Source: Nereocystis luetkeana (lineage: Eukaryota > Sar > Phaeophyceae > Laminariales > Laminariaceae). From it: a stretch of 64,000 nucleotides of DNA. The first letter of the stretch is position 1; each line of letters starts with the position of its first letter. The stretch spans positions 7,056,870 through 7,120,869 of the forward strand of contig JARUPZ010000019.1 of assembly GCA_031213475.1 (NCBI GenBank), given 5' to 3'. The position numbers and the translations under genes are program-made. The notes beneath the pieces were generated by a model. The model was not told where the DNA came from, ran no database searches, and was given only the letters and a program-made list of their open reading frames with translations. Below, piece after piece: positions 18,542 through 63,315 of the stretch.

Positions 18542-21500
18542 GTACAAGAGCGCCCCAGACTTTCGCAGGCTGGCACTGCTGGATGGCATCAGCATCATAC
18601 TAAAGTCCCATGGCCCGCAGTATCTCCACGACAGCATCGAGGCGTGCCTGCCCATGCTGCTCCATGGGATTGACAGTGTGGAGACGGGCATCATGAGGCT
18701 GGCAACAGACAACGTTCTGGTGAGACAACCCTCTACCTGCGCAAGGGGCGTATGATATGTATCATTCATATTGATGTACAGTATGCCAATCGCTGCTGCT
18801 GCTGCTGCTGTGCGTTGCCATTCGTTGTCGGCGTGAATGCACGAGGACCTCTGCTGGTTGTTGTCGTTATTTGTCGACGTGACTGTACGAGGACCGCTTG
18901 CCGCTAGCTCAGGGGTCGAGTTTAGACATGGTTTTTATGCAGACGGTGTCAGATGTACGTTCAAGAAAGGGACGACGCAACAGCAGATGATCCTCAATCA
19001 CGGCCTTGTGTATACTCCTGTACGTACGTAGCCTATTAGACTTGTGCATTTGGCCGTTACAGTCTTTGACTTTTTGGTGGCATTGCCCATGGCAACCCCT
19101 TCGGCAATTCCTGCGGCATACCATGGCAAGCCCCACAGCACGCAACGGGGAACCCGACTGCATACCATGGCGGGACTCACGGCAAGCCTCACGACAAGCC
19201 CCGCGGCAATATCCACAGCAATACCCACGGCGAGCGCCGCGGCAAGCTCCACGGCAATATCCACGGTAAGCCCCACGGTAAACCCCACGGCAATATCCCG
19301 GCAAGCCCCACGGCAAGCCCCACGGCAAGGCCCACGGCAAGCCCCACGGCAAGGCCCACGGCAAGGCCCACGGCAAGGCCCACGGCAATCGACACCCTCA
19401 AGGCACTCTCCACGGCAATCCATACATCTACCCGACACCGAGGCGCCATGATCCCACTCAGACCTGATACCACCCGAGCCTGAGCTGTGTGGGCTCAGTC
19501 CCCCGTAGTGTCAGCGCTGGGTGGGATCAAAAGACTGGGTGGGCCTCCGGTGGTTCCTGTGGAGGGCTAGTTATATATCTGCACCTTGTGCGCGGGGTCA
19601 GGTCCAAGTGGGATCAGGTTCGGGTGGGATTAGGGGGCCGAGTGGGCCTCTGGCAGCTCCTGCGGACTGAAATGCCATGGGTTGCCACCGCTTGCGGTGG
19701 AGATTGCCGCGGATATTGCCATGGGCTTCCCGTGGCAAATATCGTGGGGCTTGCCGTGGATATTACCGTGGGACTTGCTGTGGATATAACCGTTGGGCTT
19801 GCCGTGGATATTACCGTGGGACTTGCTGCGGATATTGCCGTTGGGCTTGCCGTGGGTATCGCCTTGGGGCTTGCCGTGGAAATTTCCGTGGGCTTGCCGT
19901 GGATATGTCAATCGGGCTTGGCGTGGGCATTGCTTGCCGTGACTTGCCGAGGTTTGTCGTGGTGGTTGCCGTGGGGGGGTTGCCATGGCAAGTACTGTGG
20001 TACTGTCGTGGGCAGTCATGGCAAAATCCCACAGCACGCACCACGGGCACAACCATAGCACGTGCCGTGGTAGCGTCATGGCCGATGGCAGCCCGTGGGC
20101 CTTGCCGTGGCAAGCCAAGGCAAGCCCCACGGCAGTGCCGCGGTTGGCTGCGGGTTGCCGCGGTCACTGCCATGGTAGAATACCAGAAAGTCATACTATG
20201 CGTTCGTGGGCCCATCGCTGCTATTCTACAAGAAGTTCGATATAAACGTGGATCATAACCTCTCGCTCATCCCCTTTGTTTCCTCGCTTGTTTCCACCGC
20301 CCATTGCACAAGGCTCTGAAGGGAGAACTACCAGATCCCGTAGGAGTTTTGGCCTCCCTCGTCTCTCGAGCTGTATCCTTCGGCCTTCCTCGAGCTTCGG
20401 GTCACCTGTACCTCATTGGACAGCTCCTGACAAACGCTTCTCAAGATCGCACTTTCTCTGCTGCCCTTGGCCACGCTTGCATCGGGATCCATGAGGCACC
20501 GAGGATGGGCGCTGGATTTTACGGCGTTGGCAGTCTGCTGGGAAGTGTAGAAGAGAAGCTTCGAGGTTTCGGTTCCTTCCTGGCGGCGCATGCCATGTCC
20601 TTGTCCTGCCCGGATAACGTCAAGTCGGACGTGTTGTACGTCGCCATGGAGCTAGTGGATTGTTGCGCGACACGGGCACATCAGAAGGTATCCTTGTAAC
20701 TTGCAGCTCGACGCATTTTCACTTATTGTTACAGCAGTCAAATATTCCGAGAAGATCTGGGCTGTCGAGACAGGCCCATGTATTTGTGTCTAACGTTTGC
20801 GTCAAAGGTGGCATGATATATGTATCTCTACAACGCTTCGTTTTCTGATACTCATGGCAGTGCCATGGTGCTGCCATGGGTCTTCATCCCAAGCCATGGC
20901 ACTGCCATGCCACGGCGACCTACCGCGGCGCTGCCATGGCCGTGATAGGCATAGCAATGTACCAAAGCCTATGGCAGATGCCGTGGTATCAGCCATGGCA
21001 GTGTGGCACTGCCATGGCTTATGTCATGACCGTTTACCATGGCACCTGTCATGGCACCGCCATAGTGCGTCACATGGATGTACTGCCATGGGCTGTCGCG
21101 GCCGGACTGTCATTGCATTGTTTTCATCAATCGCCATCAGTTTTGATGGCAATGGATACTATGACACCCTATGACTGCTGCCATGACAATGCCATTGCAC
21201 TGTTGTGGGCTTCGGTAGACCAACATGGCGCTACCATGGGCTTCGATAGGCCCTCTGCTATGTCACTGTCACCGACTGCCACGGGTACCCCAAGACACCC
21301 CTATGGCAATCCACGACCGTGGCACGGGAGGATCATGAAGGCCCATCCAATCCCATGGTAGTACCATGTCGATACATAAATCGCCATTAGCAGTCTCATG
21401 GGAGGGTAATCAAGGCCCATGACAGTGGCACAGGGGTGCCATGAAAGGCCCACGGCAGTTCCGTGGAGTAATCGTCGCAATCTATGACAGTCCCATGGCA

Positions 21501-37091: not shown

Positions 37092-40000
37092 CTACCTTTG
37101 CGAGTTAGGCTTGGAGGCAGCGCGAGGCTTGAGGACGCGCGCCTTCAGGCACTTGGAAAAATCGTCCAGAGTCACCTGTTCACCACCACGATCGACATGA
37201 GCATAAAAGGATGTTGGGGGTCTCCACTTCGCGGGAAACATGTGCGAAAGTTGGGGGTTCGTGAAACGGCTCAAAATGGATCGCAATGATGCCACGACCA
37301 GAGCGCTTGCCGGTAACAGCTACCGAGTGAGGCGGCCGCAAGAACACTGGGTACGAAACATGAAAAAAAAAATGTTGCTCGAGAGGCTACCTTCTTCCCT
37401 CAGAACCCGTCGCGAAGTTTCCCAGACATCGGGAGCGAGGCAAGAAATATGACTTCCTGTGAAACTGCGTTGCACGCGAGTTAACGTACTAGAGCGTCCC
37501 CAAGGACCTCCCCGGGAGCAATCGGAGAAACGATTCATCGTCTGCGACGCACGTCAAGAAGGTGATTGTCAGCGTTACGTGGGACGCGGTATGTTTTCGG
37601 CCCCAACTCTACCAAGGCGAACGGTTTCCGCCGCGGTCGCGAGTGCCAAGTCTCCGCGCACCGCGCTCGGTGCAGTATCGCGGAACCAAACCCTTCATCC
37701 CTCACCAGTCCGTCGCTCCGGCTGGACACCTCTCGCATGTACTGCTCCATGTTGCGCTTGTCGAAGCTGTCGCCTAAATACATACTGACGTCCTCTGCGC
37801 TTATCAGCCCCGCCCTGGTTGGGGCGCGAGGGGGGAGGGGCGGGGCAAAGCGTACGCACACTCGTTGGTTTCCTGCGGTACCCGACGCTTGACATGCTGC
37901 GAGAGCGTGCGCTGTGACGTTAGTCCTGCCGTAAGGGTACACTTGGTGACACGTCCTCGTGCCTCGCCTCGTTCTCTCGCACGCTTCTGCTGTACCCGCT
38001 TTCACGCAACGGCCAATTTACACACAGCCGGGCCGCGGGAAGGTCGCCTATCTGCCAAGCGAATGTGGGTTGGAAAACCGTTCTGACTTATGGCGACAAG
38101 AGGAGGGCAAAAATCGAGCGCCACCGCTGCAGCACGCCGGAGAAAGCGCCACACAACAGTAGCAGCAGCAGCAAAAGCAGCAGTAGGAGCAGCAGGAGCA
38201 GGAGCAGCTGTAGCAGACATATTCAGTAAGGAAAACTTTGCACCCCTCCTGTTCATACGCTACGGCCATGCATGATATCGAAAACACCCCCCAGCGCGCT
38301 ACCCCTCTATTACATACCTGGTATATATAGGTTGGATTGTCGCCGGTTGGCGACGACGCTGTAAAACACGCCTCTCACTACGTGAACTGGACAGCCAGGG
38401 TACCGTTTTTTTGTTTTGGCGGTCACCACGGCTGGCGGTCGAGTTAGATCGTTTTTGTGCGGGGAGAACCTTCACTCCGCACAAGGGGGATGATCGTATC
38501 ACATAGTGTGTATATGGTGAGGCACCCACGAGGCAGTTACATGGTAAACCCATTGCTGTCTCTGGAAGTGGCCACACCAGAAATTAAGTCAATAAATTGA
38601 CGCTGTCATCCATATCCAAGAAAATCCGCTTCAAACGCGGTTCTTAGTAGGATGCAGCTCACGCTTCATGCGACTGGCCCAAGACCTCACGGGGCTTCGC
38701 GCTTGGTGCAAGCAATGTCTACCTGGTCGGTGAAAACCCGACGTGCTCCGTCCCGGCATTGTAGGGATGCGAGGGTCCATGGTCACACGACTACGGCCAT
38801 GCATGATAATGAGAGCACACCCCCCCCTCTTCCCCGCCACCCCTACCTCCCACCCCCATCTCCGCCGCGCAAGTCTGTTTGGCACGCATACGCAAGAACT
38901 GCTTTATTCAGCAAGGATAGCCTTGCACCCCCCCCCCCTCCCCCCGGCCACCCCCCTCTCCCTCTCCAATCCCTCCGCCGCAAGTCTGTTTGGCAGCATA
39001 TTCAATCAAGACTGTTGTCTCAGGTACCTGGTGAAGTCGAGACGATTGAAGGCAGCCTTGATGGCGGCGTCGTTGATCTGTCGCTTCACCAGGCAAGCCG
39101 CGACGAACTCCGTGATCTCGATCGTCCCGCTTCCGTCTACGTCTATCGCCTCGAAAATACGCTCCACCTGGAGGCGGGTGCCAGCGGCCGGAGGAACAGA
39201 GAGCAGGTGCCGTGGGGAGGGAGGCGAAGGGAGAGGAGAGGGGGGGGGGGGGGGGGCAGTACTCTCTTTAACAACGTGCCACTGTAGGTGGAGCGGTGGA
39301 GGTTGGCCGCAACTGCTGTGGTTTCTAAGGGCGGGACATGGTTGTACTGCTTGAGCTGTAGACCGGTAGCTTTGGTTCGTACCTCCCCCCCTTCCCCCTA
39401 TGGTAAGGCAACCACGAGGCAGTTAACATAGTACCCCCATTACTGTCTCTGAAAGTGGCCACACCGGGAAAAAAAAAAATCAACCCCATAAAGCTGTCAC
39501 CTATTATGCAAGTCCGCCTCACAATCGGTTCTTAGTAGGATGCGGTTCACCCTTCACGCGACTCGCCGAACACCTCACGGCGCTTCGCGCTTGGTGCAAG
39601 TAATGTCTGCCTGGTCGGTGAAAACCCGACATGTTCCGTCCCGGCAATGTAGGAATGCGAGGGTCTATGGTCATACGACTGCGGCCAGGCATGATATCGA
39701 GTACCCCCCCCCCCCCCCCCGATTAGCAAAAAGTTTATATGTAATATATGGAATCAACGTAATGAGCGCCCAATTGTGGGAGGTGTCTCTTATTAGGAGT
39801 AGGAACGGTGCTCCGTCTCGAAAGGCATGTGTGGTCAATGGTTAAATGACAAAGGCGAGCAACAAAAGAGTACGCCCCCCCCCGCCCCCTTTCGAATGAC
39901 AGTACGAGTAAGCTTCTGCCCTGCCGGGGCCGCCGACTCCGCCCCGGCACCTATCCCGAAAAAAGTGTTGGGGACATGCCGGGGCCGCCGACTCCGCCCC

Positions 40001-43000: not shown

Positions 43001-46000
43001 GGAGTGAGGAATATACTTGATCTGATATTGGAGTGCACCCTCGTCGTCGGTGTCGAACGGAAGCTTGCCGCCCACGAGCGCGTACGTCATCACGCCGACC
43101 GACCACATGTCGCACTCGATTCCGTGGCCCTTGTTCCTGACGATCACCTGTCTCCAGAGCGATGGGCAAGCACGCATATGCAGGGGTATCAGGAAGAGAA
43201 GGCGTCCTATTCTGCGATCGGTGGCGGCCCTACAAACAAACGAAAAAACAACTGCAACGCCAGCAGCAGCAGCAGCAGCAGTAACGGGCCCATCACGACG
43301 CAACTGAACTTGTGCCGACCGTACCACGGCCTAAGATGGCGCCCAATCGATGCACCCAGCAGCACACCCGATAGCCGCGGACCTGTGCTACTGCCGTACT
43401 CCTCAACTGCAACAACACTGCTGTCACTGCAATAGTGCTGCACTCTGCTGTACTGTTCATGTTGTAGCACTGCCGAACTGCAAGCTACGGCTGCGTTGCT
43501 CTGCACTATGATGTTGTGCTGTGATACTGCACTACCGAACGGGAATGCTGCTGTACTGCTGTGATATTGCACTGCTGAACGGGTGCCACTGCCTGTGCCG
43601 GTACGTACCTCAGGTGCGGCGTACGTCATGGTCCCGACGAAGGCGCTCGACGTGTGACCGTCCTTGAATTCCGCGCAGAGACCGAAGTCGATTATCTTCA
43701 CGATGGGCATCGCCGAAGTGTCCTCAAACATGCAGTTCGCCAGCTTCAGATCCCGATGCTGCGGTTGACCGACGGCGTGAGGAAAGATGGAGGGGGGGGG
43801 GGGGGGGCTGTGTGGGTGACGAACAGCACGTCGAAAGTGAAAGCAAACGGAGAGCCATTAACTCGTGTCTGTCTGTTTTAGGCTACGACACCGCAAGGCT
43901 TGAAGCACCGCTTCATCTTTCAAAACAAATCAACTCTTACTAAACTAGAGACAGTATCATGGCACGGGCTTTGAGTGTAACTATTTAAAGTGGGTTGCGA
44001 AAAGACGTGATGAGGGACGTAAGCGCCGTTTGCGAGCAGTAGTCACCCACTCGAGGAGTTCACCATCGAAACGGTCAGGATGTTGAGGCAAAAAATGACC
44101 AAAATGTCCTCCTCAAAAGTATACGCGCCTATCATGCGTGCGTGACAAAGAATGTGTCTTGTTCTTTTGGGGGGGTGCGGGGATTCAAGTAGGACACCCG
44201 CAGTAACCTTATGAACTCCGTGAAGTACCATCACGGCGATCCGAGTGACCGTGTTCCTCGCCGTCACAACTCGTACAAGGGTCTTCGCGCAGCCTCCCTC
44301 CCCTCCCCCTTTTCGGGAAGTCATGCCCAACCCTCCGACGAGCAACCGTGCCCCGCTGCCACCATCACCACTGCCGCTATCGCCGCGGCCACCGATGCCA
44401 GTGCATGCAAGGGCCCTTCGTCGAACGGATTAGGCCATGACCTCACGGGTGCGCCTTGCAAAAAAAACTCAGCCGCCGTGCCCTGCCCTGCCCCAGCTCG
44501 CTAAGCGGGGATTAGACCATGATCTAACGGGTACGCCTTGCAAAAAAATCTCAGCCACCGTGCCCTGCCTCGCCCCGCCCCGCCCCACCCCCCCCTCGCT
44601 GAGTGGGATAAGCACGGCGCCTTTAGCTGTTTACGAATCGCTCTTTCTTCCGCAACTCACCGCCATGTTGAGGGAGTGGCAGTAGCGCACCGCATCCACC
44701 ACCTGCGCGATGATGTAGGCGGCGTGTCCCTCCCCGATGCGGCCCTCCTTCTTGCGGAGGGCATCCACGCTGCCCCCCTCCAAGCGGTCCAGCACCAGGT
44801 ACAGCTTCTCTTCGTCCTTTGGCTGGTACACCTGTCGTTGCCGTTTCCGGTGGAGAGAGATTGAAAGACGGGGTTAAGCGCCACTTTTGAGCTCAGAGTG
44901 CGAGCGAGGTACAAAAAAGCGTTGGGTTTCCGGTTTCCACGAGGAGTGAATTATCCGCACGGCGGAGAAGGGAGGCGTATACCCCCCCCCCCCCCTCCCC
45001 CTCAGTTACATAGTACTCCCATTGTTGTCTCTGGAAATGTCTACACCGGAAATTAAATCAACTCATTGAAGCTGTCGTCCATATGCAAGTCCGCCACAAA
45101 ACCGGTTCTTAGTAGGATGCAGCTCATCCTTCATGCGACTCGCCAGACACCTCACGGCGCTTCGCGCTTGGTGCAAGCAATGTCTGCCTGGTCGGTGAAA
45201 ACCCGACATGCTCCGTCCCGGTATTGTAGGGATGCGAGGGTCTATGGTCATACGACTACGGCCATGCATAAGATCGAGTAAATCTCTCCTATCGAGTACA
45301 CCCCCCCCCTCCCCCTCCCAACCCGCCCCCTGGGATCGAAACGTGGAGGTGTCGTGAGCACAGCAGTAGTATGGTGCCATAGTGGCTCCGAAGTCACGCA
45401 CCTCCTGCAACCTCACGATGTTGGGATGAGACAGCATTTTCATGCCCTCTATCTCGTTGTACAGCATACGCATGGTCGGCGCGTGGTGCTTGATACCCGC
45501 AAGATTAACCTGACAGTTGGACGATGCGCATTAAGATGTAGGGGGGGGGGGGTGGGTGGCGTCGACACGAAACGCTCAGATGTTGCCGAACCCTACAATA
45601 GTCATTGGCAACACCAGATTCCCACGACTACTGGTGTCTGGGTCCACCTAGCGACTGCGAATTTTAAAAAAATGGTATAGGTATGCAAGAGCTCCTCTGA
45701 CTAGTTAGCGCACGCGGGCAGCGGGGACGCATCCATCATTAGGGGGGGGCACCCGTGAGGAGATCGTGCTTGACCCCGCCAAAGACACTTGTTCGAGCGA
45801 AATTGAGAACATCGAAATCAGACAACCAGGACGCTTCACCGCGCCCTAACACCGATGCGGGGGGAAACATACTTGTAGTAACGCCTACAGTAGTGCGGTT
45901 GGGGGTTGTTTGACGGCTTGGGCTGGGATAGCCTGCAACCGGTGCTCGGTAGGAGGAGTTTGAGGTGATGAAAGGCGACCAGTACACATTGTGAAACCCG

Positions 46001-49012: not shown

Positions 49013-51646
49013 TCTGGTGCAATGCAATACGCACCTTCAGTGATCCTGGGCAGCGCAGGAGAACCCTGCAAGCTGGGGCACGGACGGACACTCACAGGCA
49101 GAATTCTGGGCAGGCTCGTGCAAAAAATGTTGTGGTTTCGGCGGCCCTTGAACATCTATCGATGCATACTCATATACATGTGTGGGGGCTTCGTGGACTT
49201 TTACTCACTAACCACGAAGGAGGTATCCCACAAATGTTGCGGCACCTTGTCAGCGCCTACTGCTCACCACGTATGTGTTGTGAAGGCTGTGCGGGATTTC
49301 TTACGTCGACTGCGTGCCCTCGAGGTAACTGCGTGAGCTTCACGCTGTGTAGCGTGGGGAAGGCGCGGGGGGGGTGTCCACCCGTGGGATAGTTGAGAGA
49401 GGGGGCAGGGGGATCGCAGTTAGTTGCTGCCGAGGAAGAAGCATAGTGCTTTGGTGTATTTTAGGCAATCACAGAAGAAGAGGGCCGGACAACGGAGAAG
49501 GGTATACAAGTTTTTCGTATCACGTTTGTTTGCGGATTTGGCGTGGGAGCAAGTTTCGTTGGGCCAGAGCTTGGCCAGAGAGAAAACACTGACTGGGCTT
49601 GACTGGTTCACAGATTGTTTTCCAGACGAACACGAACGGGTGGAATAGCACGGGTACTGGGAGCAGGCTCGTGCAGAATATGTTTCCACGCGGCCAGGAA
49701 ACGTCATGTTCGGCGGGACCAAGGTTATGACCGTATACACCAGGCGCAGCACTAGACACATATACGAAGAATAAATGAATGTGCGCGGAAATTGTGGAAT
49801 CCGTATGCTGACCGGGTGTCATGAACAGGGCGTTGCCAACTTCTATTGCTTATCACGTTGCGCAGAATATGCAGAAAAATTCTACAGTAGCGACCCATCC
49901 GTGTTCAAAAAAGGCCCAAGTTGTTCTTGGTCTCTGCTTATATACACAAGTTACAAAACACGTGTTGGGGGGCTATCGCAGTCCCATAAGTTATGATCCC
50001 CTGCTGCTCGTTTCAGTTGTGCTTCGGGATCACAATTCGTCCGAAAACCAACCTGTACACAAGAGCAAACGCGTGCGCCACATCTAGCAGCGCTGGCTAG
50101 GTGTTTCGCGGTACGTTCGCGAGAGGGGCATCATCAGTACTTGTAAAACATATGTTATGGCGCCCCGCAATACTTGCTTGTGTTCACAGATGACGCACAT
50201 CTAGTTCGGCCAGTTTCCGGGCATGCTTACTGACTTGGCGTGTTCACGTTTTCTTACGTGTGAAGTTTTTCGTCTCTTGTGTGTAGGCATAAGCAAACGA
50301 GAGCCGACAAAACCCCTCCCCTCCAGCATATCATATAGTCGATCGAGCTCTGACCACCGTACTGTTTTATATACTATCGTAGGATTCCCACCCACCCAGC
50401 GGCCAACGGCGAAGACATGCACTCCAGAAAACCAGAATCCCTGTAAAACCGATACGAGCTACGTACCAGTATGAAATGGAGTACAAAATGCCTCAAACGA
50501 AACATACCGCCCGCGCATGGCGAGGGTTTCCACACGTGCATCGCGGTGCATCGCGGCGCACCACCGACATAGCTCTCTCGTCCACACCAAAAGCCAGGGG
50601 CGAAACTGCTACCGGTACCGCACGCGGACAACGACCCAGCCGCACCGGCCCATATGCTGCTACACAATCCCTGTTCAGCTTTATCGCAGGCTGGATCCGC
50701 TAAAATTGGGACGCATGCCCTGACACTGCGACCAAAAGGACCCTCACATGAGTTTTCACCTCTCACAAGCCGGTTCTAACATTGAGAGCAGGCGCGTGCG
50801 GGGGGAGGAGGGGATCCGCGATGCTACTTTTATGGCACTGTGCCCAAGAAAACAGGAGGGCAGTCAGCCATCATCCGCACACGCTGCGTGATCTCCATTC
50901 TTCCGTCTGCCAGCGATCCCGAATCTAGAAATATCTGAATCTAAACTGAAACGCCCGGCGATGAAGCGGCCGACGAGCTCTTGCAGGGTAGGGCGCGGGC
51001 AGTCTTCGCCAAGCTCGGGAGGCGTTGTCACTAAGGGATAGGTCGAATCTGGTGCGGTCAGAAGTTTTGATGGCAAAAGACGAGACGAGACGTGGTGTCG
51101 GGCGGGGGGTAAGCACGACTCGGGAGAAGGAAGCAGACAAGCTCAAGGCGATGGACCGACTAGCGCTTGTATCCCAACGCGAAAGCACTGGTGTTGCATA
51201 AAAATGACGGGAACGCGTGCGATTTTCAAGAGCTTCGTTGGCCAAGGCAGAACGTGATCATCCCCACAGTCAAAGCATATGGTGGTCATGGAGGGCGACC
51301 GACATGCCGCCTCATACACTTGCCGTCCGGAAACACATCCCATCGAGCCAAGTATTACACGTAGGGGTGAGGGCAACACACAAACAGATGCTATCGCTAT
51401 AATATATATGGTATCAGGTAGTCTACTGTGGACATCGGCTACTTTCCCAAGAAAGCTTCCCGTAAAACGGACGAGGAGACGTATGACATGATTCGCGAGA
51501 CACCCACCAAGAGAAACGCCTACTCGTAAATATTTGACTCGCTGTGCCGCTCAATTAATGAATCACAGCAAAATATCGGATTTTGATGAAGCATTCTACG
51601 CTACCTGCCGTGGAAAACAGAGGGCTGGTGACGCGCCGAGCCCTAC

Positions 51647-54600
51647 CTTGAAGTGTAGGGTGATGAGGGAGAACACCAGGCACTTGAGGTCCTGGATGAG
51701 GTAGTAAAAAATGCGCAAACCTTCCGGGTCATTGCTCTCTTGCACGTCCAGCAGGGATCCTATCTTGGAACACTTCGGAGTCAAAACCAGGTGTAAGGGA
51801 CGGGGGGGACGAGAGCAGAATCGGTCACCTCACGACTCCCTGTAGAAGGAAGAGACGGCGCGCGCCCTCAACACCTGGGCTTCATTCGGGAAGCGCGCTC
51901 GTGCGCTCCACGCCAACAGCCCTCCCCCAAACACGCTTCTTCTTACCGTGAAAGAAATGTGTTCCTTGCCCAGTTTTACCTCCAGCTCTTGCCTCCCCAC
52001 ACGGTCAGGCTCCGGCCAGTTGTGGTCGTCCTCCCTGCCCGGCAAGGTGACAGAGGCCGATTAGTTGAAGGTATTTCATCGATGCTCAGGGACTAGGCGT
52101 GCAGGCAGCGAAGGCTCGCAAAACCGTCCCGAGGGTTGTGGTCGGAAAACGTCAAGGAATCGCCTCCTCCCCGACTCTCAAGAATGCGCTACTTTCGAAG
52201 CAGTTTCTCTGTTCCAACTCACGGGGGAAAATAATCAGGCCCATTCCGAAGCAAACGATCAGCGAGCTCTCGTATGCACATGCGCAACGACATAACCCTT
52301 CCGTGCCGCCCGCCCAAAAGTCTCAGTCCTAAGAAGGTAGGCAGACTACTCTTACCCCAACCCTCGACCGACAAAGGTAGACAGACGGTCCGGCCGGGAA
52401 AAATAGAGAAAGACAAGGCAGACACAATAGTCTACAGCAAGTGCCCAGAAAGTGCGACTGCGCGAAAACGCTACTGATACAACCTACGGTCCTTCCGAAC
52501 GAGGCGTGGGACCACCCACGCCGTCGCACAATACACGCCAGGGACACGTTGCGCCAACCAGCAGACGCTTTAAAAACGCCAAAGGAAAATCGGCGGCGAT
52601 TGCGCACGGTGCATCTCCCTTGCTCTTCGTCCGTCGGCAGGGGAGGGCGGGTTGTGAGTTGACCCATAATCAGATGAGAGTGTGCTTGAGGGCACACGGC
52701 GCCACGATACGTTTCTGAACCCGGCCTCTGGCGGACCCTCTCCTGCACGATCCCCTGCCTTATACTGGTACCGGGCACTGGTATGTGTTCCGGAACTGCC
52801 GGATTATCTGCTTATCGGGCTGACATTGTTGCCTCCATCACTACTGCCGCCCCGCCCGCCCATTCCAGCAAGCGAGGTCTATTAGAGATACGCCCTAACC
52901 AACTGAGCTAACAGTCAGTGCTAACTCCAATAGAAGCATTCGGGGTCCACCGACTGTATGTATAACGGAATAGGGTGCTAATACGAGTCCACGCGCAATG
53001 CAGCCGCTACCGATCGAGGAGACAGTTGGGTTAGCCTGGACGGGCGTTCGGTGCGAGACACTCACGCAATGATATCCGCCTCCTGAATGATTCGACGAAC
53101 TTCGTCGAGGACGGCCTGGCTCACGGTCACCTCCTTCCGAATCATTGTGTCGTTCTTGTAGTTGGAGTTGTTGGCATACCTAAGCTTGCCGGTGCTCGAG
53201 AACTCGAACTCCATGAACTCGTGCCCGAACTTACCCTTGTGGCCCACACTGATACCAAAACGAGCGCACAACGACACAGGCAGGATCACCGCGAAAAAAA
53301 AAGTTCATCGAAAGCAGAGGAACAGGGTCGAGGGTGACGACGCGTCTCTCTCTTGAGAGACAAGGCTTTTTCTCGCGGTGCTCTGAGGGAGCAGTAAACA
53401 AATGTCTTAAAATTCCCATGAAACGACGCAGGAAGTGCTTTGCGAAAAAAGGCACGCCAGCGGAACCGCATGCATGCATCCCGAAAGTGTCAATCTTGTT
53501 CGGGTGTCGAAAACGTCAACATGTCGAAGCACAACGAGGCCACCAACGCCTCCTAAGCACTCGTACAGACCCTCTGCCGTTTTGAAGCCGACGGACTTTT
53601 GCGGGTCACTGATAACGCGAACGTTGAATCGACCCGCTGCTGCTTTTGCGACGGTGTTAACAGGTCGTTTACTGGCTTATAACAGTGACAAATACTGGTG
53701 ACAAATCTACCAGGTTCAACCCTTTGTGGCTTGGGTGCGTCCTAATTCTGGAAAGGGTTGCACGTGAATCATGATGTCGGCAATCTCTACATAAGTCGGC
53801 GGTCGGCATCTCCGGTCTGCTTGCTTGGCATTGTCACTGCCCCTGCCGAACTGTGATATGAACACGAGCACATCCAGAAGCCAGCTCGACCAAATCGCAT
53901 CCATAGCCGATTTTTTTTCTTGTAAGTTTTTCGGATGTACCTACGTAGGGCTCCAGCACCTTTGTGTGACCACGAACATCTTGATTTGAGAGTTAATAGA
54001 GAGCGATATCTATTTTGTAGCTTCTAAATCTCCAAAAATAGCCCTGAAGTAACAAAATGAGGTAATGATTTGAAAAGACAGCGAAAAAGTACCTTAGGGA
54101 AGGTATTAGATCGAAAGTTCCGGTCATTTTAGTTTCGTTGGCCTACACGCACCGAGCATCATCCCGACGCAGAACGCATCTTCGAGGATTAAAACATCGA
54201 GCATCTTCCATGCCCCCACGCACCATGATGCTTGCTGTATACAACACGACAAGGCACAGAGGCTCGAGAGGTGCAGCTGGAGTTTAACGCGGACGGTCGG
54301 CGTTGGATTGTGCCAGCGGGCCACCGGCGGCCCGCTGCTACGATACGCTTTCGCCGCTTGGTGTCGTGGAGGAGTCGTCCCGAAAGGACTCGTACTCGTC
54401 CTCGTGCTCGTACCGCCTTGCTCGTGGAGCGCGACAGCATGACAGCTCGTGTATGATTTCAATTCCATCATACTGCGGTAGCAGCAGCAGCAGCAGCAGC
54501 AGCGGCGGCAGCTGCAGCGGCGGCGGCGGAGCGGAGCGCGCCGGCGCTGTGGCGCGCGTAGGCTGAGCGCAGCAGCAGCAACAGCAGCAGCAGCATTCGA

Positions 54601-55660
54601 AAAAAGCAAAAATGGAAGCTGGTGCTGGTGTCGATGCTGTTCATTTTCGTTGCTGGAGCTGATGGTGCCCCTACCTGCCGCTTGCTGTGCTGCTGCTTGC
54701 GGTCGTAGGAGGGCTGTGCCGCCACTGGCACTGCGGTCAAATCTGCCGCCGACACCGTTGCTGGGCTGCCGTTACTACTCGCAGGCTGTTTTTATGTTTT
54801 TTTGTTTGTTCTTGTTGGTTTGGCGCATTGCCGCACACCCCCGCTTCCCTCCTCGATTTCGGAGGAGTCGCCTGCAGGATTTGGTCTACCTCATCCGCAA
54901 ACTCACCAAAATCATGATGGGGTGGGAATTCATTTTTTTAGCGGAAGAAAAGTAAATTCCTGAAGACACTTTTTCGCACTTTATCATAATGCGAGGGCAA
55001 CAACAACACCCCAGGTGTACCAAAGTGGCCCGAAACACAATAACGAAGGGCCTTTTTAGGATACTATTAACTCTATGCTCGTGGCTCGTGCACACCGTAA
55101 ACCAGTACGATATACTACAGCAGTACAGCAGTAGATCTATGATATGCAACATCGAATCAGGTACCTGTACGTCAGCATCCTGAATCAAGCCCTTATATAC
55201 CAGCTATCATATGGTTACGAGTATTAATACCTGGTCGTCGGTAAGCCGCAGAACGAGCACACGGGTGTCTCGTGCCTCGTGCAGGGTCTCATCGAGCTTA
55301 CCTGGTAGTTTAATCGACCCTTGCGCCCCAGGGGGACCAAGAGGCAGGAGAGGGGCAACGACACCTACTTGATCACCAGGTACATTACAGTATGCAAATA
55401 ACTTTGCACACCCTAGCCTGACCCCGCTTGGCACCCTGGTCACACCCCCCACCCGGACCTGATCCAAACTGACAGGAGGGAGGGGCCAGAAGTTGTTTGA
55501 GAATCAGGAGGCGTGATTCTCCTTCCGTTCCCCCTTCTCGAATTGAGATCTCTCACCCACCGCCATTCGCAATAGTGGATCCCTAGGTATCCCACCACAT
55601 CAAACACCTCGCCCCATGCACTTCCACTCACTAGTAGCGACAGTAGAACTGGTCCGCCAT
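51647..55660 (-). CDS. MAGOH: Mago nashi, exon junction complex core subunit
   Basis: Binds Y14 as an obligate heterodimer that locks eIF4A3 on spliced mRNA; acts in mRNA localisation, translation and nonsense-mediated decay. Exons in phase: 55660-55632 ([10 protein letters not shown]), 53248-53066, 52034-51947 and 51772-51647. The product reads [60 protein letters not shown] and [16 protein letters not shown]. It is among the most conserved eukaryotic proteins and matches throughout. Exons sum to 142 residues against 146 in the human protein, which ends IKPI after HFK. The fourth exon ends at HFK with a good donor (AAG|GTAGGG), so a terminal exon of about four codons should lie downstream. 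I could not place it. Reading through would instead add 16 residues before a stop. The 29-nt first exon was found by phase and sequence: ATGGCGGACC start, GTGAGT donor. The gene diverges from Y14. Confidence 0.96.
52880..52918 (-). tRNA. tRNA-Ile(AAU)-like 5' half, fragment
   Basis: On the minus strand TTAGCTCAGTTGGTTAGGGC is a canonical D-arm with the A box, followed at the right distance by a 7-nt loop CTAATAG with AAT in anticodon position. After the loop there is no 3' anticodon strand, no GGTTCGA T-arm and no acceptor match, so this is a half-tRNA relic rather than a working gene. It sits in the second Mago intron, same strand. Confidence 0.55.
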
Positions 55661-57835
55661 GGAGACCTCTATGCCCTCGCTCCGGTCCTGGCTGAAACTT
55701 CGCCCCTCCTCCTCCGCGCTTTGAGCTAGGCAGCGTTGCAGCGCTTCCCTGCTTTGCTAGCCGATTTGTAATCTCCACGCTCCGCCCCTCAGTCGCCGAG
55801 CGCTCAGATTTCTCCCACAATTAAACGAGGAGGTGGCGACCGAGGGAAGTCACTCTCTCTCTAACCCTCGCCACTCTTTGGTCTGAGCACCCTGTGTAGG
55901 ATCAGGACGTCGGTACCGCAGGAGAGGGGATAAAGATGGGTTGCCGTCAGACGAGAGACGAGAGAGACGAGAGGAGAGGGCGTTCACTGGATAGCGTTGG
56001 CGTTCGTATTAGGGGATGGCATGCGTATCACCCCTAGCCACGACCAGCCATCTTGCAGCCGGCAGCGCAACCCGAAGTCGACTGCTGGATCCACAAGGGA
56101 GCCACATAGAGCAGGTGTGTACCGCCGCCTACATTGCTCGTAAAAAATATGTCGATGGCCTCCTCTGCTTCATCCCAAAGGCCGACCTGGCTGATTGGGA
56201 GGTCTATGGGTCGGAAGGCGGAATGGCCAAGATGCAGCAATTTGCAAGTTTTCGATGCAAAGCGCGCCGATTTCGATTGCTCTGCGCCCGCGCACGGCGG
56301 CACCCTTCGATTCCACGAGGAATTTCTCAGGCAGTAGTCGAGCGATGCAGGGTTGGTCGATACCTTCCTCTGAGTTGGGGAAGTCTCGGTAGCGAGAGAA
56401 CGAGAGAGGTGAATTTTTGGATGGGAGCTGCTGTCCCGCCCATGGTGAGACACGCGCCACACCGCGATCGCGATCACCAGACAGGGGGAGGAATAGACAG
56501 AGGAAGAAAGCAGACCTTTGGCTATCAACCTCAACAGTTGAATGGTCGCAGCCCTACGTGCACGGTTCCTGTGGTGCAGGGTGTAGTTGCCCTCTCTTGG
56601 CGCTGTGACGACGCGGACCTGGATCCGCCCAGCCGAACTGCTCGCCTCTAGAGATGATGTGGTCCAACTCTCACTGGCCGGTTAATTTTGTAATATGTTT
56701 GCTGCTGCCAAGTTTCCTTCCTCTGTCCCTCTCTCTCTGGCTGGTGACTTGTGGCGCACTGGGGAGGAAGTGTTTTACCCCCCTTGGCAAACGAGACAGC
56801 GAGAGCTAGAGGGGAAAACAATTAACACTCCGCGCTCGCGCAGTTGCTGAGCTGCACCTTCGAGGGTCTGTCGGCGCGGCTGCTGCTGTGTTGGCGCTGT
56901 TTTTTCCCTCGTTATATCTGGTACCTGTAGACTCGAATGCGACAAACCACCATGTGCGGAAATGTAAGAACCGTTTGATCGTTTGTGGTAATAAGCTCCC
57001 CACAGAACGGCCTTTACATTTCCGGACAGAGCTCGGATCGTATCATCTCCCACGTCACGTGGTACTCGTACCTGGTTCCTGGACCCCTTTCCTGGTACCT
57101 GGGAGTACCACATTACCATGTTGTTTTAGCTCCGTGTCGGGTTGGGCATTACGCTCCTTGTACACGAGAACTAAACCCTCGATATTCGCTTTTGTTTCTT
57201 AGCAACCTAGCTCTATATAACAACGCCGCGCGCGTTGCTTGATCTTGAGTTTTTCGGTCTGCTGATCGCCAGTATGTATAGCACGAGCTTCGGCTGCTGG
57301 ACTACATCGACGGAAGAGCGGCTGACATGCACTCACGTTGCAGCAGCCACAAGCGGTGGCAGTTCTCTTTCACGACTGTTGCTGTTGTGTCGGCGTTCTG
57401 AGGTGGTCTGAGGTCCCTTCCGCCTGGCAAGGTCTACCACGGTGATGTTTGTTACGGAGTACCCTGGTAAACGCTACGGTGCCGCCTGCGGTTTCTGTCC
57501 AGGTACTGCTACTGTCTATATAGCCACCCCTCGTCCTGAGGCATCGGTGTTCTCCCTCCCCTGTAGCAGGCGTCGCCTCTTCTTGGCCGCCCTCCCTCGT
57601 TCATCATATCATATCATACGAGTAGGTAACTCCGCCGATCACATCGATGTTGTACCAACTCCATCCCGCTTTACCCCCAAGCCACCAATCCAGCCCCACC
57701 CCACCCAACCGCCTCCGCGAAGAAACTAAGGGGCAGCAGCAGCAGCACCCAACAGCAAAACCGACCCCCCCTCCCGCCTCTTGCGCGCCTCCCGCCAGCC
57801 AGCTGTGCTCCCATATACCCTGCACAAACCAGACC
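55661..57835. promoter_or_regulatory. divergent intergenic region between Mago and Y14, candidate bidirectional promoter
   Basis: The start codons of the two exon junction complex genes face away from each other across about 2.2 kb. A purine-rich GAGAGACGAGAGAGACGAG-like stretch near 55950-55980 and a CTCTCTCTCT run near 55852 stand out. No TATA box or other element can be assigned with confidence. Large frames on both strands at 56016-56651 show no domain and are taken as non-coding. The promoter role is inferred from position only. Confidence 0.4.
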
Positions 57836-60800
57836 ATGGCGGAAGAGGTCGACTTCGAGCCCGAGTACGATGAGGAGCAACCCATGGACGAAGGCGAGGG
57901 CGAGGCAGAGGGGGGTGGGCAAGGGGACGAGGATGTAGGCAACGGCAGCGCGGCGGCGGGGGCGGCGGCGGGGACGCCGGCGGGCGGTAAGGGTCGGAAA
58001 GGCGCGACGAAAGGAAGGGGGCATCAAAACGCCGCCATGGAAGTGGAAGACAGGCAAGAAAGACCACAGCACAGATTTCGTTCCGTGTACGGGGGTATGA
58101 TGTACTGTGGTATTAATAGTTCATGTTTGAAAATACGAAGGGTCGGCGCTTTTTTCGTGGTGTTTTTTTTTCAATGCGGTTTGTGATGGCGCGGCGTGGG
58201 AGCGAGCCTGTTCCACGGGGGGGGGGATGTACTCATGTCATCATGCTTGGCCGTAGTCGTATATGACCATAGACCCTCGCATCCCTACAATGATGGGATG
58301 GAGCACGTCGGGTTTCCACCGACCAGGCAGACGTTGCTTGCACCAAGCGCGAAGCGCTGCGAGGTATTCGGCGAGTCGCATGAAGGGCAAGCTGCATCCT
58401 ACTAAGAACCGCTTGTGAGGCGGGGTTGGACCAGGCAGGCAGTGCTGCGTGTTGGTGTTGGTGCTAGCGTGCTCGTGCCGGAGGCTGCCCTCTTCTTGCT
58501 GTTGATGTGCGTTCCATGTTCTGGTGAACAGAGTATGCCTGTGGGTCTTCGGAAATCGGGGCGCACTACGACGTACTACTGTACGGCTTTTGTGCCCCTC
58601 TCTTCATGGTCTGCGTGTGTTTATTCTGGCCATGCTACGGGTACGAGTAGGAGGTTCGCATGCTGTTCTCAGGTTGTTTCAGGTTGCGGTGTTCTCGCAG
58701 CTGTGAGAGCTTTGAGGCGGTAGCTTTTGTCGCAAAACAGGAGTAAAAAAGTACGGGTTTCGTAATTGATCTCTTGTGCATGTGTTTCGCAGCCAAGGGA
58801 AGCGGCGGAGGGCGGGTCGAGTTCGCAAGCAGAAAAAAATACATGCATAGCACGAGCTGCACGGCGTGCGGCAGCGAGTTGATTGGCCTACGGAACCTAC
58901 TGGTACAATAGTTGTACAACCCATGGAGGGTACAGCACACTCAAACAGATATCAGGAGGCAAGGGCGAAGTCTTCAAAATGGTACTGGTGCATACCTTGT
59001 ATCACAGGAAAACAGGGAGGAACCCGCCTCTTTCAAGGTGGCCGTACCGCCGCACAGTCGGCACTACAGTGCAACTGTAGGTAAACAACTCAGGGGGGCT
59101 GCCTGTTAGCGCAAAGCACGGCACCCTCTTTAGTCCTGAGGTATTGGGGCAACGGCGATATCACGCGCTCGATCGCTGGTAACATGCTACCGCTGCTGTG
59201 AAGGCTCGCACCGCCGTACATACTACCGCCCGTTTCGAAGCGGTGCGCCGTGTTTGACGATCGACGACTCTCGACATGATGACCCTTCAGCACCCACCGT
59301 CCGATGCGATATCAGCCGACCAACAACCGAAAGCCGGTTCGCGCTCGGTTTGATTGGAGCTTCGAGCGATATGTACGCCGTTTTTTTTGTCGTCGTTGTT
59401 TCCGATTCTCTTTTTTCAACGGTAATGTAGTAGTCATGAGCACCAACGCCCCCCCCCCCCCGTCTCAACGTGCCTGGGGGTGACGGCATTGTTTCCGTAT
59501 GTATACCCAACCGTTACCTACCCACCCGCAAAATCCCCCTCCCACGTCCCACATCCTCCGTCTCCACGGACTTGTGGCGATGGCGTTTTTTTGTGTTTTT
59601 GTAGTTGTAAAATATACAAGGATCGCGGCGGCGTGTTCGAGTCGGTAGACGTCGGGCCAGCGGCGGCGTTTTGTTCCGTTTTTAGTTTCAACCGTCACCT
59701 AGCCACCCGCAAAACGCCCGTCGCCCGTCCCCTTCCCGATCTCAACGGACATGCGGTGATGTCGTTTTTTTTTTGCTTTTTGTGCGTTGATTTTCTTGTC
59801 GTATATATGGGAGGGTCGCGGGGGCGTGTTCGAGCGGGTGGACGTCGGGCCGACCGGCGGCGGGTGTTTTTTGTTTGTATTATCAACCGTTACCCAAGCA
59901 TCTGCATCGCGCTTTCCCCCCCCCTCCGTCTCAACGGCTCAACGAGCTTGCTACTATGGCGTGTTTTTGTTTTTTTGTTTTTTGCCGTGAAGATACAAGG
60001 GTCGCGGAGGCGGGTTTGAGCCGGTGGACATCAACCCGACCGGCGGCCGGCGTTATTTGCGCTTATATTCTGGACCTTCACCTAACCATCTGCATCACGC
60101 TCCCGCTCGTCCCCCGTCCCCCGTCTCGACGACCTTGCGGCGATGGCGTTCTTTTTTTTGTGTTTCGTGGACTGCTGTTGTAAAGATACGAGGGTCGCGG
60201 AGGCGTGTTCGAGTCGGTGGACGTCGGCCCGACCGGCGGCCCACAGCGCAGCGTAGAGGGGTGGATCCTGTTCGTGCGCAACGTTCACGAGGAGGCCCAG
60301 GAGGACGACATCATGGACAAATTCTCAGAGTTCGGCGCGGTTAAAAACCTGCACGTGAATCTCGACAGGCGCACGGGCTTCGTCAAGGTGTGTATTGTAG
60401 TGCCTGGTATATGTTTTGTGTATGAATGTGAGTAGCGCGTGTGGTGCTTTCTGTCGAGGTTGGAAATTGAGTTGGTTACCCGCAGTGCTTCCAGGAGGTC
60501 TCAATGTGTCGGGTAGGGATTGGAGGGGTGGAGCGGCGCGGGGAGGGGGGGTGTACTCATAGTCATGCATGGCCGCTGTCGTGTGACCATAGACCCCTCG
60601 CATCCCTATATACAATGCCGGGACGGAGCACGTCGGGTTTTCGCCGACCAGGTAGACATTGCTTGCCCCAAGCGCGAAGCGCCGTGAGGTGTCCGGCGAG
60701 TCGCATGAAGGGAGCTGCATCCTGCTAACGACCACTTGTGAGGCGGACTTGCATATGGACGACAGCTTCAAAATGAGTTAATTTATTCTCCGGTGTAGGC

Positions 60801-63315
60801 ACTTCCGCGTGGAGGCGGGGGGGGGGGGGCGAGGGCGAGGTACTCATTTCATGGTTTGAAAATATGTTCATGGTTGCTTTGCGGCACCACTAATCTGGAG
60901 AGCTACCCTGTTATTTTGGGTGCACCTATTCCTGTGTTGAACCACAAGGGATAGCGATGCTGATAGCCAGAGCTAGAGCCAAAGCCAGAGCCAGGGCCAG
61001 AGCCAGAAGTGACGGTCGAAGTGACGGCAACTACGACAGCGATGTCGGCGTGTCGGCCCTTCCGATGGCCCGTGTCGGCTCGGTATCGTGACGTGCAGGG
61101 CGTTGTATTTTCGCCATCGATGTTGGCGCCGCTTCTGGCGGCGCGAGTTTCCCTCACGGCAGAAGTTTGTGATGAGGATGGCAAGGGCCGTTGTTCCCGT
61201 TTGTTGTGGTCGCGCCGGGGAGGGGGCTGCCTGTTGAGGCTATTTTGTCGTTGGTGTACGTACGTGGGTGTGAGCTCGGGGGGGTTGGCAAGGTTGACTC
61301 AACTACCTCGCCGTGCCGCTAGCTAGATGTGTCAGTCCTGTACACCAGTCGGTACTGTTACGACCGTGCAAGACACAAGATAGCACATGCCCTGGGATGA
61401 GTAGCTCGCCCTCTGGGGTTAAACTTCAAGGCGATGAGCATTTCCGAAACAAGAGAGGCACACACGCACGCACGCACACACAGCGAGAATTCCAGGCCAG
61501 GTCGTGGTTTGCTTGGGGATCGATATTGTCTATTACGGGGGGCTGTAGTAAATAGGATCAAATATAATGTTGGTAAAAATAGGTAAATGTACAGGTTTTT
61601 GGGTCTACCGTAGGTTCTACAGTATTTCCTATGGTCCCCCGTAATAGTTACAGTTAAAAACGCCTCGTTCGGCCTGTGCACTCCCCTTCCCCCCCCCAGT
61701 TCCCAATATAATCAACTTGGAACTCGTCCGAGGGGGGGGGTGTTTTTCTATTAATAATAGTAATAGTGCGTTTGACAAACCTGGCATTTTTTTAAACACG
61801 ATATTTTGGCCTGTACACCAACCAGTCAGTAAGTCTGGATTGAATAGTTGAGGTGGCAACGGCGGGTATGGCGGTCGAGACGGCCCGTCGTGCCTGCGTA
61901 TGCGGGGTGAATGTTTCACACCTCGAATACGTAGGTCATTGATTCCAACCTAATGATTAATAGGCGATTTTGAAACAGGGCAGCTGGATAGATCCCTGAT
62001 TTGTATGATCTGTATGGTCTAGCCCCATGTTGCCGGGTGGGAGGAGCCGTAGGCAGCCTTTGATACACTGTAGGACAGTTTTCCTCGGCTGGATCTGTAC
62101 TGTACAACAGATCCTGCACGGCATATCGTAACGGCGGCTTATGATCTGGAGATGGTCTACTTTGAAAGACAGATTGATTGTGATATGCCCGAGGTGTGCC
62201 AACGTTTTTGTAGGCGCGATCTGACGGTGATGTCGTGTGAAGAACGAGAGGCTGCGTTTGTTGCTGGATGCCGCCTGCGGTATCGGGCGAAGCCGCCTGC
62301 GGTATCGGGCGAAGCGCGCGGCCGGACGGGCGCTGCAGCAACTCCGATCTCGATGAATGAATAATTTTGACTGTTTTTTTTACCTGCCCGGCAGATGCGA
62401 GCACCAGGTATTTCCTGACTGCGGGTTAAATTGACACACCACACGGATTCTGAACGTGGAAGTGTCGTGAGCTCAAGGTTTATTTTTACCAATCCGCCGG
62501 AGGAAAAAAACAAAGAAAAGATAAAAGAAAAAGACTGCTGTACTTTATTGGGTGATTAGGGTTAGGGTTAGGGTCAAGTTATGTTGGCATCGACCGACGA
62601 GGGCTTGGCGTGCTCTGTTACCGTATGGCGGACCACGCGCGTGGTCTCTCATGTCGTTCGCAAGGTGCCCCCCCACCCGTCTCGAAAGGGGTGCGTGGTC
62701 AAGGGTCCACAAGGCTAAGGCAAGCAACATGAGTACCCCCCCCGCCCTGCTCCGTCTCGAAAGGGATGCGTGATCAATGGTCAAATGGCTAAGGCAAGCA
62801 ACAAATGAGTACGCCCCCCCCCCCCCCCCCCCCCCTCCCCACCTGGTTGGTGAAAACCCGACGTGCTCCGTCCCGGCATTGTAGCGATACGAGGGTCTAT
62901 GGTCGTACGGCTACGCCCATACATGATGATGAGTACCCCCCCCCCCCCCCTCTATGGTCATACGACTGCGGCCATGCATGAGATCGAGTACATCTCTCCT
63001 ATCGAGTACACCCCCCCCCCCCCCCTCCCCCCTCTATGGTCATACGACTGCGGCCATGCATGAGATCGAGTACATCTCTCCTATCGAGTACCCCCCCCCC
63101 CCTCCATCCCCAACCCTAACCCTCCGCCTATCCCCTATTCCTTTCGATTCGTCCTTGCGAAAAAATACCCAAAAATATCAAAAATAACGCCTTGGCACAG
63201 GGGTATTGTTTGGTGGAGTTCGAGAAGAAGGAAGAGGCGCAGCTGGCTATCGACGAGATGGACGGTTCACAGCTATTGGAGCAGGACATTTCCGTGAAGT
63301 GGGCCTTCGTGAGGG
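57836..63315 (+). CDS. RBM8A: Y14 / RBM8A, exon junction complex RRM protein (3' end incomplete)
   Basis: RNA-recognition-motif partner of Mago nashi in the exon junction complex. Exon 1 starts at ATG 57836 ([20 protein letters not shown], like the acidic plant Y14 N-terminus) and runs through [11 protein letters not shown] to about 58050. Exon 2 spans about 60193-60387 ([19 protein letters not shown], then [15 protein letters not shown] and [11 protein letters not shown]|, donor AAG|GTGTGT). Exon 3 spans 63201-63315 ([25 protein letters not shown], donor GTGAGT). The RRM's RNP2-like ILFVRN and RNP1-like GYCLVEF are visible. The exon 2-3 join is in phase. The donor of exon 1 is not settled: a tempting GC donor at 58054 has the wrong phase for an acceptor at 60192, so a small exon may lie between. 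The Arg/Ser-rich tail is expected beyond 63315 and was not found. Introns of about 2.1 and 2.8 kb hold tandem repeats, SINE-like copies and a MITE. Confidence 0.93.
58216..58430 (-). repeat. poly(C)-tailed SINE-like element (Y14 intron)
   Basis: Minus-strand copy: a G-run with TGTACTCATG, GGCCGTAGTCGTATATGACC, CTCGCATCCCTACAATG, CACCAAGCGCGAAGCGC and CTGCATCCTACTAAGAACCG. Confidence 0.8.
59450..60246 (+). repeat. four ~190-bp tandem units carrying the Y14 exon-2 acceptor
   Basis: The anchor GTCGCGG-GGCG occurs at about 59622, 59815, 60001 and 60194, spacings of 193, 186 and 193 bp. Each unit has a CAACCGTTACC-like start, a C-rich tract, a T-rich tract of 20-35 nt, an AG, and about 50 nt matching the start of Y14 exon 2 (translated [16 protein letters not shown]). 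The last unit runs into the real RRM exon. A partial fifth unit (CCCCGTCTCAACG) is seen near 59450. Confidence 0.85.
60541..60800 (-). repeat. poly(C)-tailed SINE-like element (Y14 intron)
   Basis: Minus-strand copy with the family blocks through CTGCATCCTGCTAACGACCA. It runs further into the 5' part (GACTTGCATATGGACGACAG, AATGAGTTAATTTATTCTCC) than the 58216 copy. Confidence 0.8.
61531..61646. mobile_element. TA-flanked MITE, copy 5 (Y14 intron)
   Basis: 116 bp. Left end TTACGGGGGGCTGTAGTAAA and right end TATGGTCCCCCGTAA match the family; TA flanks are kept. The interior is slightly longer and more diverged than in copies 2 and 4. Confidence 0.75.
62556..62573 (+). repeat. interstitial telomere-like (TTAGGG)3
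   Basis: Three perfect TTAGGG units in Y14 intron 2, at the left border of the poly(C)-module chain. A short CCCTAACCCT at 63114-63123 lies at the other border in opposite sense. Confidence 0.8.
62679..63100 (+). repeat. chain of poly(C)-ending repeat modules
   Basis: Two copies of a GTCTCGAAAGGG..TGCGTG unit ending GAGTAC-poly(C) (to about 62735 and 62835) are followed by a SINE-like 3' part (62842-62950). After these come two tandem copies of only its hairpin end (62953-63020 and 63032-63100), each closing with CTATCGAGTAC and a C-run. The chain ends about 100 bp before Y14 exon 3. Confidence 0.8.

What the first reader, a model, noticed from the sequence alone, without database searches (positions are those of the whole stretch)
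51647..63315. Mago nashi and Y14 are adjacent and divergent
The two genes encode the obligate heterodimer of the exon junction complex. Their start codons (55660 minus, 57836 plus) face away from each other over about 2.2 kb with no recognisable gene between. Clustering of partner subunits is rare in eukaryotic nuclei; a shared promoter would give 1:1 dosage. I know of no description of this pairing, but cannot exclude one.
Basis: partly seen in the sequence, partly recalled or inferred. Interest (0 to 1): 0.88.

Follow-up and report, generated by a model that had tools for sequence, protein, structure and literature searches.

The report
Neighbouring Mago and Y14 genes, divergent
In this brown alga the genes for two proteins that work as a pair on spliced messenger RNA sit side by side, pointing away from each other, and they appear linked in at least three related genera; a shared control switch is possible but not shown, and head-to-head neighbours are common in brown algae.

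Summary
Confirmed: an intact Mago nashi gene (minus strand, five exons, 147 aa) and an intact Y14/RBM8A gene (plus strand, four exons, 191 aa; last exon 1 kb beyond the window) lie head to head, 2,175 bases between start codons, no recognisable gene between. The host is a brown alga near the Ectocarpales. Mago has one locus in the 465-Mb assembly; a genome-wide search for a second Y14 never got an answer. Mago and Y14 proteins report contigs of identical length in Pylaiella littoralis (430,891 bp), Scytosiphon promiscuus (161,745) and Ectocarpus (109,102): linkage in 3 of 3 brown-algal genera listed for both; spacing and orientation there were not readable. The shared-promoter, equal-dosage reading is unsupported: in Ectocarpus 61.7% of genes beside TSS-adjacent intergenic regions belong to divergent pairs, expression within pairs is uncorrelated, and 2.2 kb between start codons exceeds the ~600 bp at which TSS chromatin is shared. 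Best reading: a conserved partner-gene neighbourhood, probably kept by slow gene-order change. My literature searches found no description of it. A new member of a known kind; moderate interest.

The parts
55632..55660 (-). Mago nashi exon 1 (start codon at 55660; [10 protein letters not shown])
   Evidence: GT donor; same first ten residues as P0001, P0002, P0003 and P0005
53066..53248 (-). Mago nashi exon 2
   Evidence: PF02792 E 1e-24
51947..52034 (-). Mago nashi exon 3
   Evidence: PF02792 E 8.5e-7
51647..51772 (-). Mago nashi exon 4
   Evidence: PF02792 E 1.9e-16
51031..51048 (-).
   Evidence: the only place on the minus strand between exon 4 and the window's first base that fits AG + I(R/K)PIP + stop; same C-terminus as P0002, P0006 and P0010
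55661..57835 (.). 2,175-bp gap between the two start codons; the 5' ends and promoter(s) are expected here; no recognisable gene
   Evidence: no blastn match elsewhere in the window at 1e-5
57836..58053 (+). Y14/RBM8A exon 1 (start codon at 57836), ending at a GC donor CAG|GCAAGA
   Evidence: junction ...[14 protein letters not shown]... as in P0121-P0124
60186..60387 (+). Y14 exon 2 (first part of the RRM)
63201..63315 (+). Y14 exon 3 (second part of the RRM). Terminal exon GGKGTGQPGRRRR-stop lies outside the window at L004:1012-1052 (C19:7121881-7121921); it was picked from eight candidates by likeness to the C-terminus of P0123
59614..60185 (+). three degenerate upstream copies of the start of Y14 exon 2 in intron 1 (starts 59614, 59807, 59993), spacing 193, 186 and 193

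Best explanation
Shown: two intact, intron-containing genes for the Mago-Y14 heterodimer are immediate head-to-head neighbours in a brown alga, and proteins of both genes come from contigs of identical length in Pylaiella, Ectocarpus and Scytosiphon, so the genes are linked there. Inferred: the pairing arose once, by a chance rearrangement before these genera split, in a lineage where most genes already sit in divergent pairs, and has persisted mainly because gene order changes slowly there. Each gene most likely has its own transcription start region in the 2.2-kb gap; both are housekeeping genes and would be broadly expressed whether or not they share elements. Dimer stoichiometry would then be set by stability of the bound partners rather than by a common promoter (general knowledge, not tested).
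For: Complete gene models and family matches. One Mago locus genome-wide. Identical longest-contig lengths for Mago and Y14 in Pylaiella littoralis 430,891, Scytosiphon promiscuus 161,745 and Ectocarpus 109,102. Divergent orientation is the common state in Ectocarpus (61.7%) and expression within divergent pairs is uncorrelated. The gap is longer than the 409-bp median of Ectocarpus divergent pairs and than the ~600-bp limit for shared TSS chromatin (start codons here, intergenic regions there). Other EJC-related families are not here: PYM on C21 and C32, Btz/CASC3 on C3.
Against: A given partner being the 5' neighbour by chance has odds of roughly 1 in 15,000-20,000 (recalled gene numbers), so chance is not comfortable for this pair alone; a few hundred possible obligate pairs bring it to a per-cent level. 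Linkage in three genera is also what selection for co-regulation would give. Promoter sharing cannot be excluded, because the true 5' ends are unknown. The base-rate control with other complexes got no answer.
Confidence: 0.6

Rival explanations
1. A shared bidirectional promoter in the gap co-expresses Mago and Y14 so that the heterodimer is made in balance, and selection keeps the pair together.
For: Partner subunits, head to head, no gene between them, linkage in three further genera. Divergent pairs of subunits with shared control are known elsewhere (collagen and TAP1/LMP2 named in PMC2871058).
Against: 2,175 bp between start codons is long for a shared promoter; Ectocarpus divergent pairs are independently regulated on the whole; no expression data here; the gap shows no CpG enrichment over the window (o/e 0.88 against 0.95).
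Confidence: 0.22
2. The pair is much older than the brown algae (ochrophyte or stramenopile) and survives as ancient microsynteny.
For: Not excluded: outside the three brown-algal genera no stramenopile was seen listed with a contig for both genes. Y14 of Phaeothamnion (4,254-bp contig), Chrysoparadoxa (28,418), Ochromonadaceae (6,947) and Choristocarpus (7,140) was listed with no Mago among the best 120.
Against: No positive evidence outside the three genera.
Confidence: 0.1
3. Adjacency is an artefact of assembly or of retrocopies.
For: The assembly has many small contigs, some of which may be duplicate copies (one RRM match appears with the same score on C27, C244, C538 and C1332).
Against: No Ns; both genes keep introns; 10.8-Mb contig; both genes share a contig in assemblies of three other genera.
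Confidence: 0.01
4. The pairing is not general in the order: some ectocarpalean relatives have the two genes apart.
For: Two EukProt predictions carry gene numbers far apart (Mago P0022 g5499.t1; Y14 P0121 g9928.t1); if from one genome numbered along its scaffolds they are not neighbours.
Against: The entries may be from two different genomes; no source species is shown, and this could not be resolved.
Confidence: 0.07

Closest known systems
Divergently transcribed gene pairs of Ectocarpus (PMC7784034, passages seen)
   Same: Head-to-head neighbours in a brown alga; 61.7% of genes flanking TSS-adjacent intergenic regions belong to such pairs
   Different: Median intergenic distance there is 409 bp, here 2,175 bp between start codons (different measures); the pairs as a whole are not co-expressed, and partner identity is not discussed in the passages seen
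Conserved divergent pairs of partner genes in eukaryotes, e.g. histones H2A/H2B and H3/H4 (PMC2871058, passages seen)
   Same: Genes for direct binding partners arranged head to head
   Different: Those pairs are listed as conserved in several eukaryotic groups; Mago and Y14 are not named in that paper's main text (0 occurrences)
eIF4A-III / PRP9 divergent pair (PMC2871058, table passage; fungal by its table codes)
   Same: An exon junction complex core gene in a conserved divergent pair with a splicing gene
   Different: A different EJC subunit and a different partner, apparently fungi
Head-to-head integrin alpha/beta genes in Capsaspora (PMC5560861, passages seen)
   Same: Heterodimer subunits head to head in a nuclear genome
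   Different: Membrane receptors in Holozoa, four pairs, co-expressed in the life cycle

Membership tests
Mago nashi (PF02792) | Full-length Mago domain | tested here: met
   E 3.2e-76 over 142 of 142 positions; Drosophila Mago and human MAGOH chains E 2.7e-72 to 6.2e-72
Y14/RBM8A | RRM protein with closest similarity to RBM8A rather than to other RRM proteins | tested here: met
   The ten best PDB sequences are all RBM8A or Drosophila CG8781, E 3e-38 to 1.1e-33; the next is a poly(A)-binding protein at 3e-22 (60 of 185 shown)
Y14/RBM8A | Binds Mago as an obligate heterodimer | not testable with these tools
   Inferred from homology to chains of shared PDB entries such as 1hl6, 1p27 and 2hyi
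Head-to-head (divergent) gene pair | Adjacent genes on opposite strands with 5' ends facing, no gene between | tested here: met
   a non-coding or very short gene in the gap is not excluded (no Rfam match in the window)
Bidirectional-promoter pair | Start sites within 1 kb (PMC7817982, abstract in listing) | tested here: inconclusive
   Start codons 2,175 bp apart; transcription start sites unknown
Bidirectional-promoter pair | Co-expression or a shared nucleosome-depleted region | not testable with these tools
   No expression or chromatin data available
Conserved microsyntenic pair | Both genes linked in related species | tested here: met
   Equal contig lengths in 3 of 3 brown-algal genera listed for both genes with a contig; an indirect test, since the contigs themselves were not read
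Conserved microsyntenic pair | Immediately adjacent and divergent in related species | not testable with these tools
   No DNA of those contigs was accessible

The most novel reading that the evidence does not exclude
Brown algae keep the two genes of the exon junction complex heterodimer in one head-to-head unit under selection, with a shared regulatory region that balances Mago and Y14. It would be a splicing-complex counterpart of the divergent histone pairs, in a lineage with intron-rich genes where supply of this dimer may matter.
Probability: 0.15. Interest if true: 0.6.

Novelty: new member of a known kind. Interest (0 to 1): 0.36.

Why it matters
If the pair is kept by selection, it gives a natural system for asking whether dosage balance of the exon junction complex heterodimer is set at transcription, and the 2.2-kb gap is small enough to test. 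If it is kept only by slow gene-order change, it is a useful marker of brown-algal microsynteny and a caution against reading co-regulation into head-to-head partners.

Tried and rejected
First Y14 model: I placed the exon 1 donor at 58094 (GTATG), giving an extra stretch, and used wrong forms; the relatives' proteins showed the true junction at a GC donor after 58053, and later calls used the corrected 191-aa form. One search's listing therefore rests on a 187-aa query wrong at one junction and lacking the last exon; one search repeated the search with an alignment holding the corrected form and listed the same five brown-algal entries (P0121-P0125). The Mago query lacked the last five residues.

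The 200-aa frames in the gap were considered as a third gene and rejected. Assembly join and retrocopies were rejected (see rivals). Pfam scans of 40 stop-free frames in and around the window, including the two gap frames, gave matches above the curated cut-off for 2 of 40: a protein kinase (43210-43857, minus) and a Zn_clus domain (L005:2490-3794, minus); below it were a mucin-like and a reverse-transcriptase match. These 40 are a choice of longer frames, not all. tRNA and Rfam scans of the window were empty.

Not achieved: genome-wide search for a second Y14, copy number of the gap in the genome, and a base-rate control with other complexes (MCM, LSm, CCT, proteasome). The RRM_1 family search (18 matches at E 1e-10 or better, 150 of 189 candidates scored) cannot settle Y14 copy number: Y14's RRM is split between two exons and the Y14 locus itself was not listed.

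Full report
What was checked. The finding says that Mago nashi and Y14, the obligate heterodimer of the exon junction complex (EJC), are adjacent and divergent. I rebuilt both genes from the DNA. Mago on the minus strand has five exons (55660-55632, 53248-53066, 52034-51947, 51772-51647, 51048-51031), its four introns all GT-AG, and gives a complete 147-aa protein. Y14 on the plus strand has exons 57836-58053, 60186-60387, 63201-63315 and a last exon 1 kb beyond the window (L004:1012-1052), giving 191 aa. That last exon was chosen from eight candidates for its likeness to the C-terminus of an Ectocarpus Y14. Intron 1 starts with GC rather than GT; the resulting junction is the one seen in four related proteins. 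Family membership is clear. No transcript was available to confirm the borders.

The gap. Between the start codons lie 2,175 bases. Stop-free frames of just over 200 aa occur on both strands, but 117 of 500 second-order Markov sequences reach the longest one, and neither frame matches Pfam. The gap has no match elsewhere in the window; its copy number in the genome was asked for and not answered. The window, the 20 kb after it and the 10 kb before it hold no Ns, and the contig is 10.8 Mb long.

Uniqueness. The Mago family matches three places in the 465-Mb assembly, all exons of this one gene. For Y14 the same check never got an answer (calls listed in Tried and rejected, last). Two other EJC-related families lie elsewhere: PYM (two matches, C21 and C32) and Btz (one match, C3). 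eIF4A3 was not searched. So this is a pair, not a larger EJC cluster, as far as tested.

Host and conservation. Mago is 100% identical over the 142-aa query to a Pylaiella littoralis protein and 94-99% to the other named brown-algal entries in the list, so the host is a brown alga close to the Ectocarpales. It need not be Pylaiella littoralis: the partial Y14 of that species is 98% identical over 55% of the query. The protein searches give no context but do give the longest contig of each protein cluster. Mago and Y14 carry the same length in Pylaiella littoralis (430,891), Scytosiphon promiscuus (161,745) and Ectocarpus (109,102) (Y14 again). For Ectocarpus the two clusters bear different strain names (sp. 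12 AP-2014 for Mago, CCAP 1310/34 for Y14) and the Mago cluster covers three contigs, so there the identity of the contig rests on the equal length alone. Equal lengths to the base can hardly be coincidence for contigs of this size, so I take the genes as linked, within 109 kb in Ectocarpus. These are 3 of 3 brown-algal genera listed for both genes with a contig. Other brown algae had only one gene listed (Mago: Laminaria, Hapterophycus, Ascophyllum, Sphacelaria, Undaria without contig, and further Ectocarpus entries, among them E. siliculosus on a 5.8-Mb contig; Y14: Choristocarpus). The lists show the best 120 of 3,171 Mago, 1,904 Y14 and 2,920 Y14 matches, so absence from a list is no evidence. 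As comparison outside the brown algae, of the plants that I noticed in both lists, Fraxinus pennsylvanica also shows one length for both (35,000,339, a chromosome-sized contig, hence uninformative), and Nepenthes gracilis and Sphagnum troendelagicum show different lengths; I did not count these systematically. Against general conservation: two EukProt predictions, Mago g5499.t1 and Y14 g9928.t1, would be far apart if they come from one genome; their species is not shown.

What it means. A chromatin study of Ectocarpus (PMC7784034, passages seen) reports a relatively strong tendency of adjacent genes to lie on opposite strands: 61.7% of genes flanking TSS-adjacent intergenic regions are in divergent pairs, with a median distance of 409 bp. 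Pairs closer than about 600 bp share a nucleosome-depleted region, yet expression within pairs is uncorrelated (Pearson 0.042; 0.054 under 600 bp). So divergent orientation needs no special explanation in this group and does not predict co-expression. A survey of gene order in 64 eukaryotes (PMC2871058, abstract start and passages seen) states that a significant number of genes for subunits of stable complexes lie close together, and lists divergent histone pairs and an eIF4A-III/PRP9 pair. The pairing is thus a new instance of a known kind of arrangement.

Chance. With 15,000-20,000 genes (recalled for brown algae), a named partner is the 5' neighbour with odds near 1 in 15,000-20,000. Counting a few hundred obligate pairs that a reader might have noticed, one such case per genome has a probability of the order of 1-2% (inference). 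This leaves room for selection but does not demand it, and conservation among genera of one order can be inertia. A control with other complexes in this genome was tried and not answered.

Literature. Searches for Mago nashi with Y14 and head-to-head, EJC with Mago, Y14 and synteny, Ectocarpus with exon junction complex, and Mago with Y14 and bidirectional promoter listed 1, 4, 3 and 1 papers. Of these nine I looked for terms inside five: PMC6351623 (synteny there concerns UPF3/THP1 and PYM), PMC5560861, PMC13236599 (exon junction complex only in a reference title), PMC5158136 (head-to-head not in the main text) and PMC9674712 (only in reference titles). The other four I saw in the listing only. 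I also searched PMC3885619 on Mago-Y14 co-evolution for chromosomes and synteny (0 occurrences of either). Four searches on divergent or bidirectional arrangement in brown algae brought PMC7784034 and nothing on this pair in what I saw. The library holds open-licence papers only, so a description elsewhere is possible.

Verdict. Interest is moderate.

Noticed in passing
window 59614-60240: Y14 intron 1 holds three degenerate tandem copies (spacing 193, 186 and 193) of the start of exon 2 and the sequence before it. Frames stay open over 18 codons; silent versus replacing codon changes against exon 2 are 1/5 (59993), 2/2 (59807) and 4/5 (59614). Only the 59993 copy keeps an AG right before it, so only that one could be a decoy acceptor at the same spot.
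   Followed up: partly
window 58053-58060: Y14 intron 1 uses a GC donor (CAG|GCAAGA) instead of GT, as inferred from relatives' proteins.
   Followed up: yes
window 58217-58423, 60541-60746, 39514-39716, 38626-38827, 45091-45269 and others: A dispersed element of about 200 bp: the copy at 58217-58423 matches ten further places in the window on both strands, the four longest at 83-88% identity, others shorter or weaker (72-92%); copies lie in Y14 introns 1 and 2. Not identified.
   Followed up: no
public Mago entries P0016, P0020, P0021, P0022, P0035 and P0001, P0003, P0005, P0007: Several brown-algal Mago predictions lack the sequence before MEFEF or carry a different C-terminus instead of IRPIP; the small first and last exons seem to be missed by automatic annotation.
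   Followed up: partly
G000:C27:3166179-3166370, C244, C538, C1332: One RRM match occurs with the same score on a large contig and three others, suggesting duplicate contigs in the assembly or recent copies.
   Followed up: no
G000:C21:3617130-3617210 and C32:1500228-1500290: Two loci match the PYM (Mago-binding) family, E 1.7e-12 and 3.6e-8; both may be real paralogues.
   Followed up: no
window 43210-43857, minus: Frame with a protein kinase match (PF00069, E 4.2e-13).
   Followed up: no
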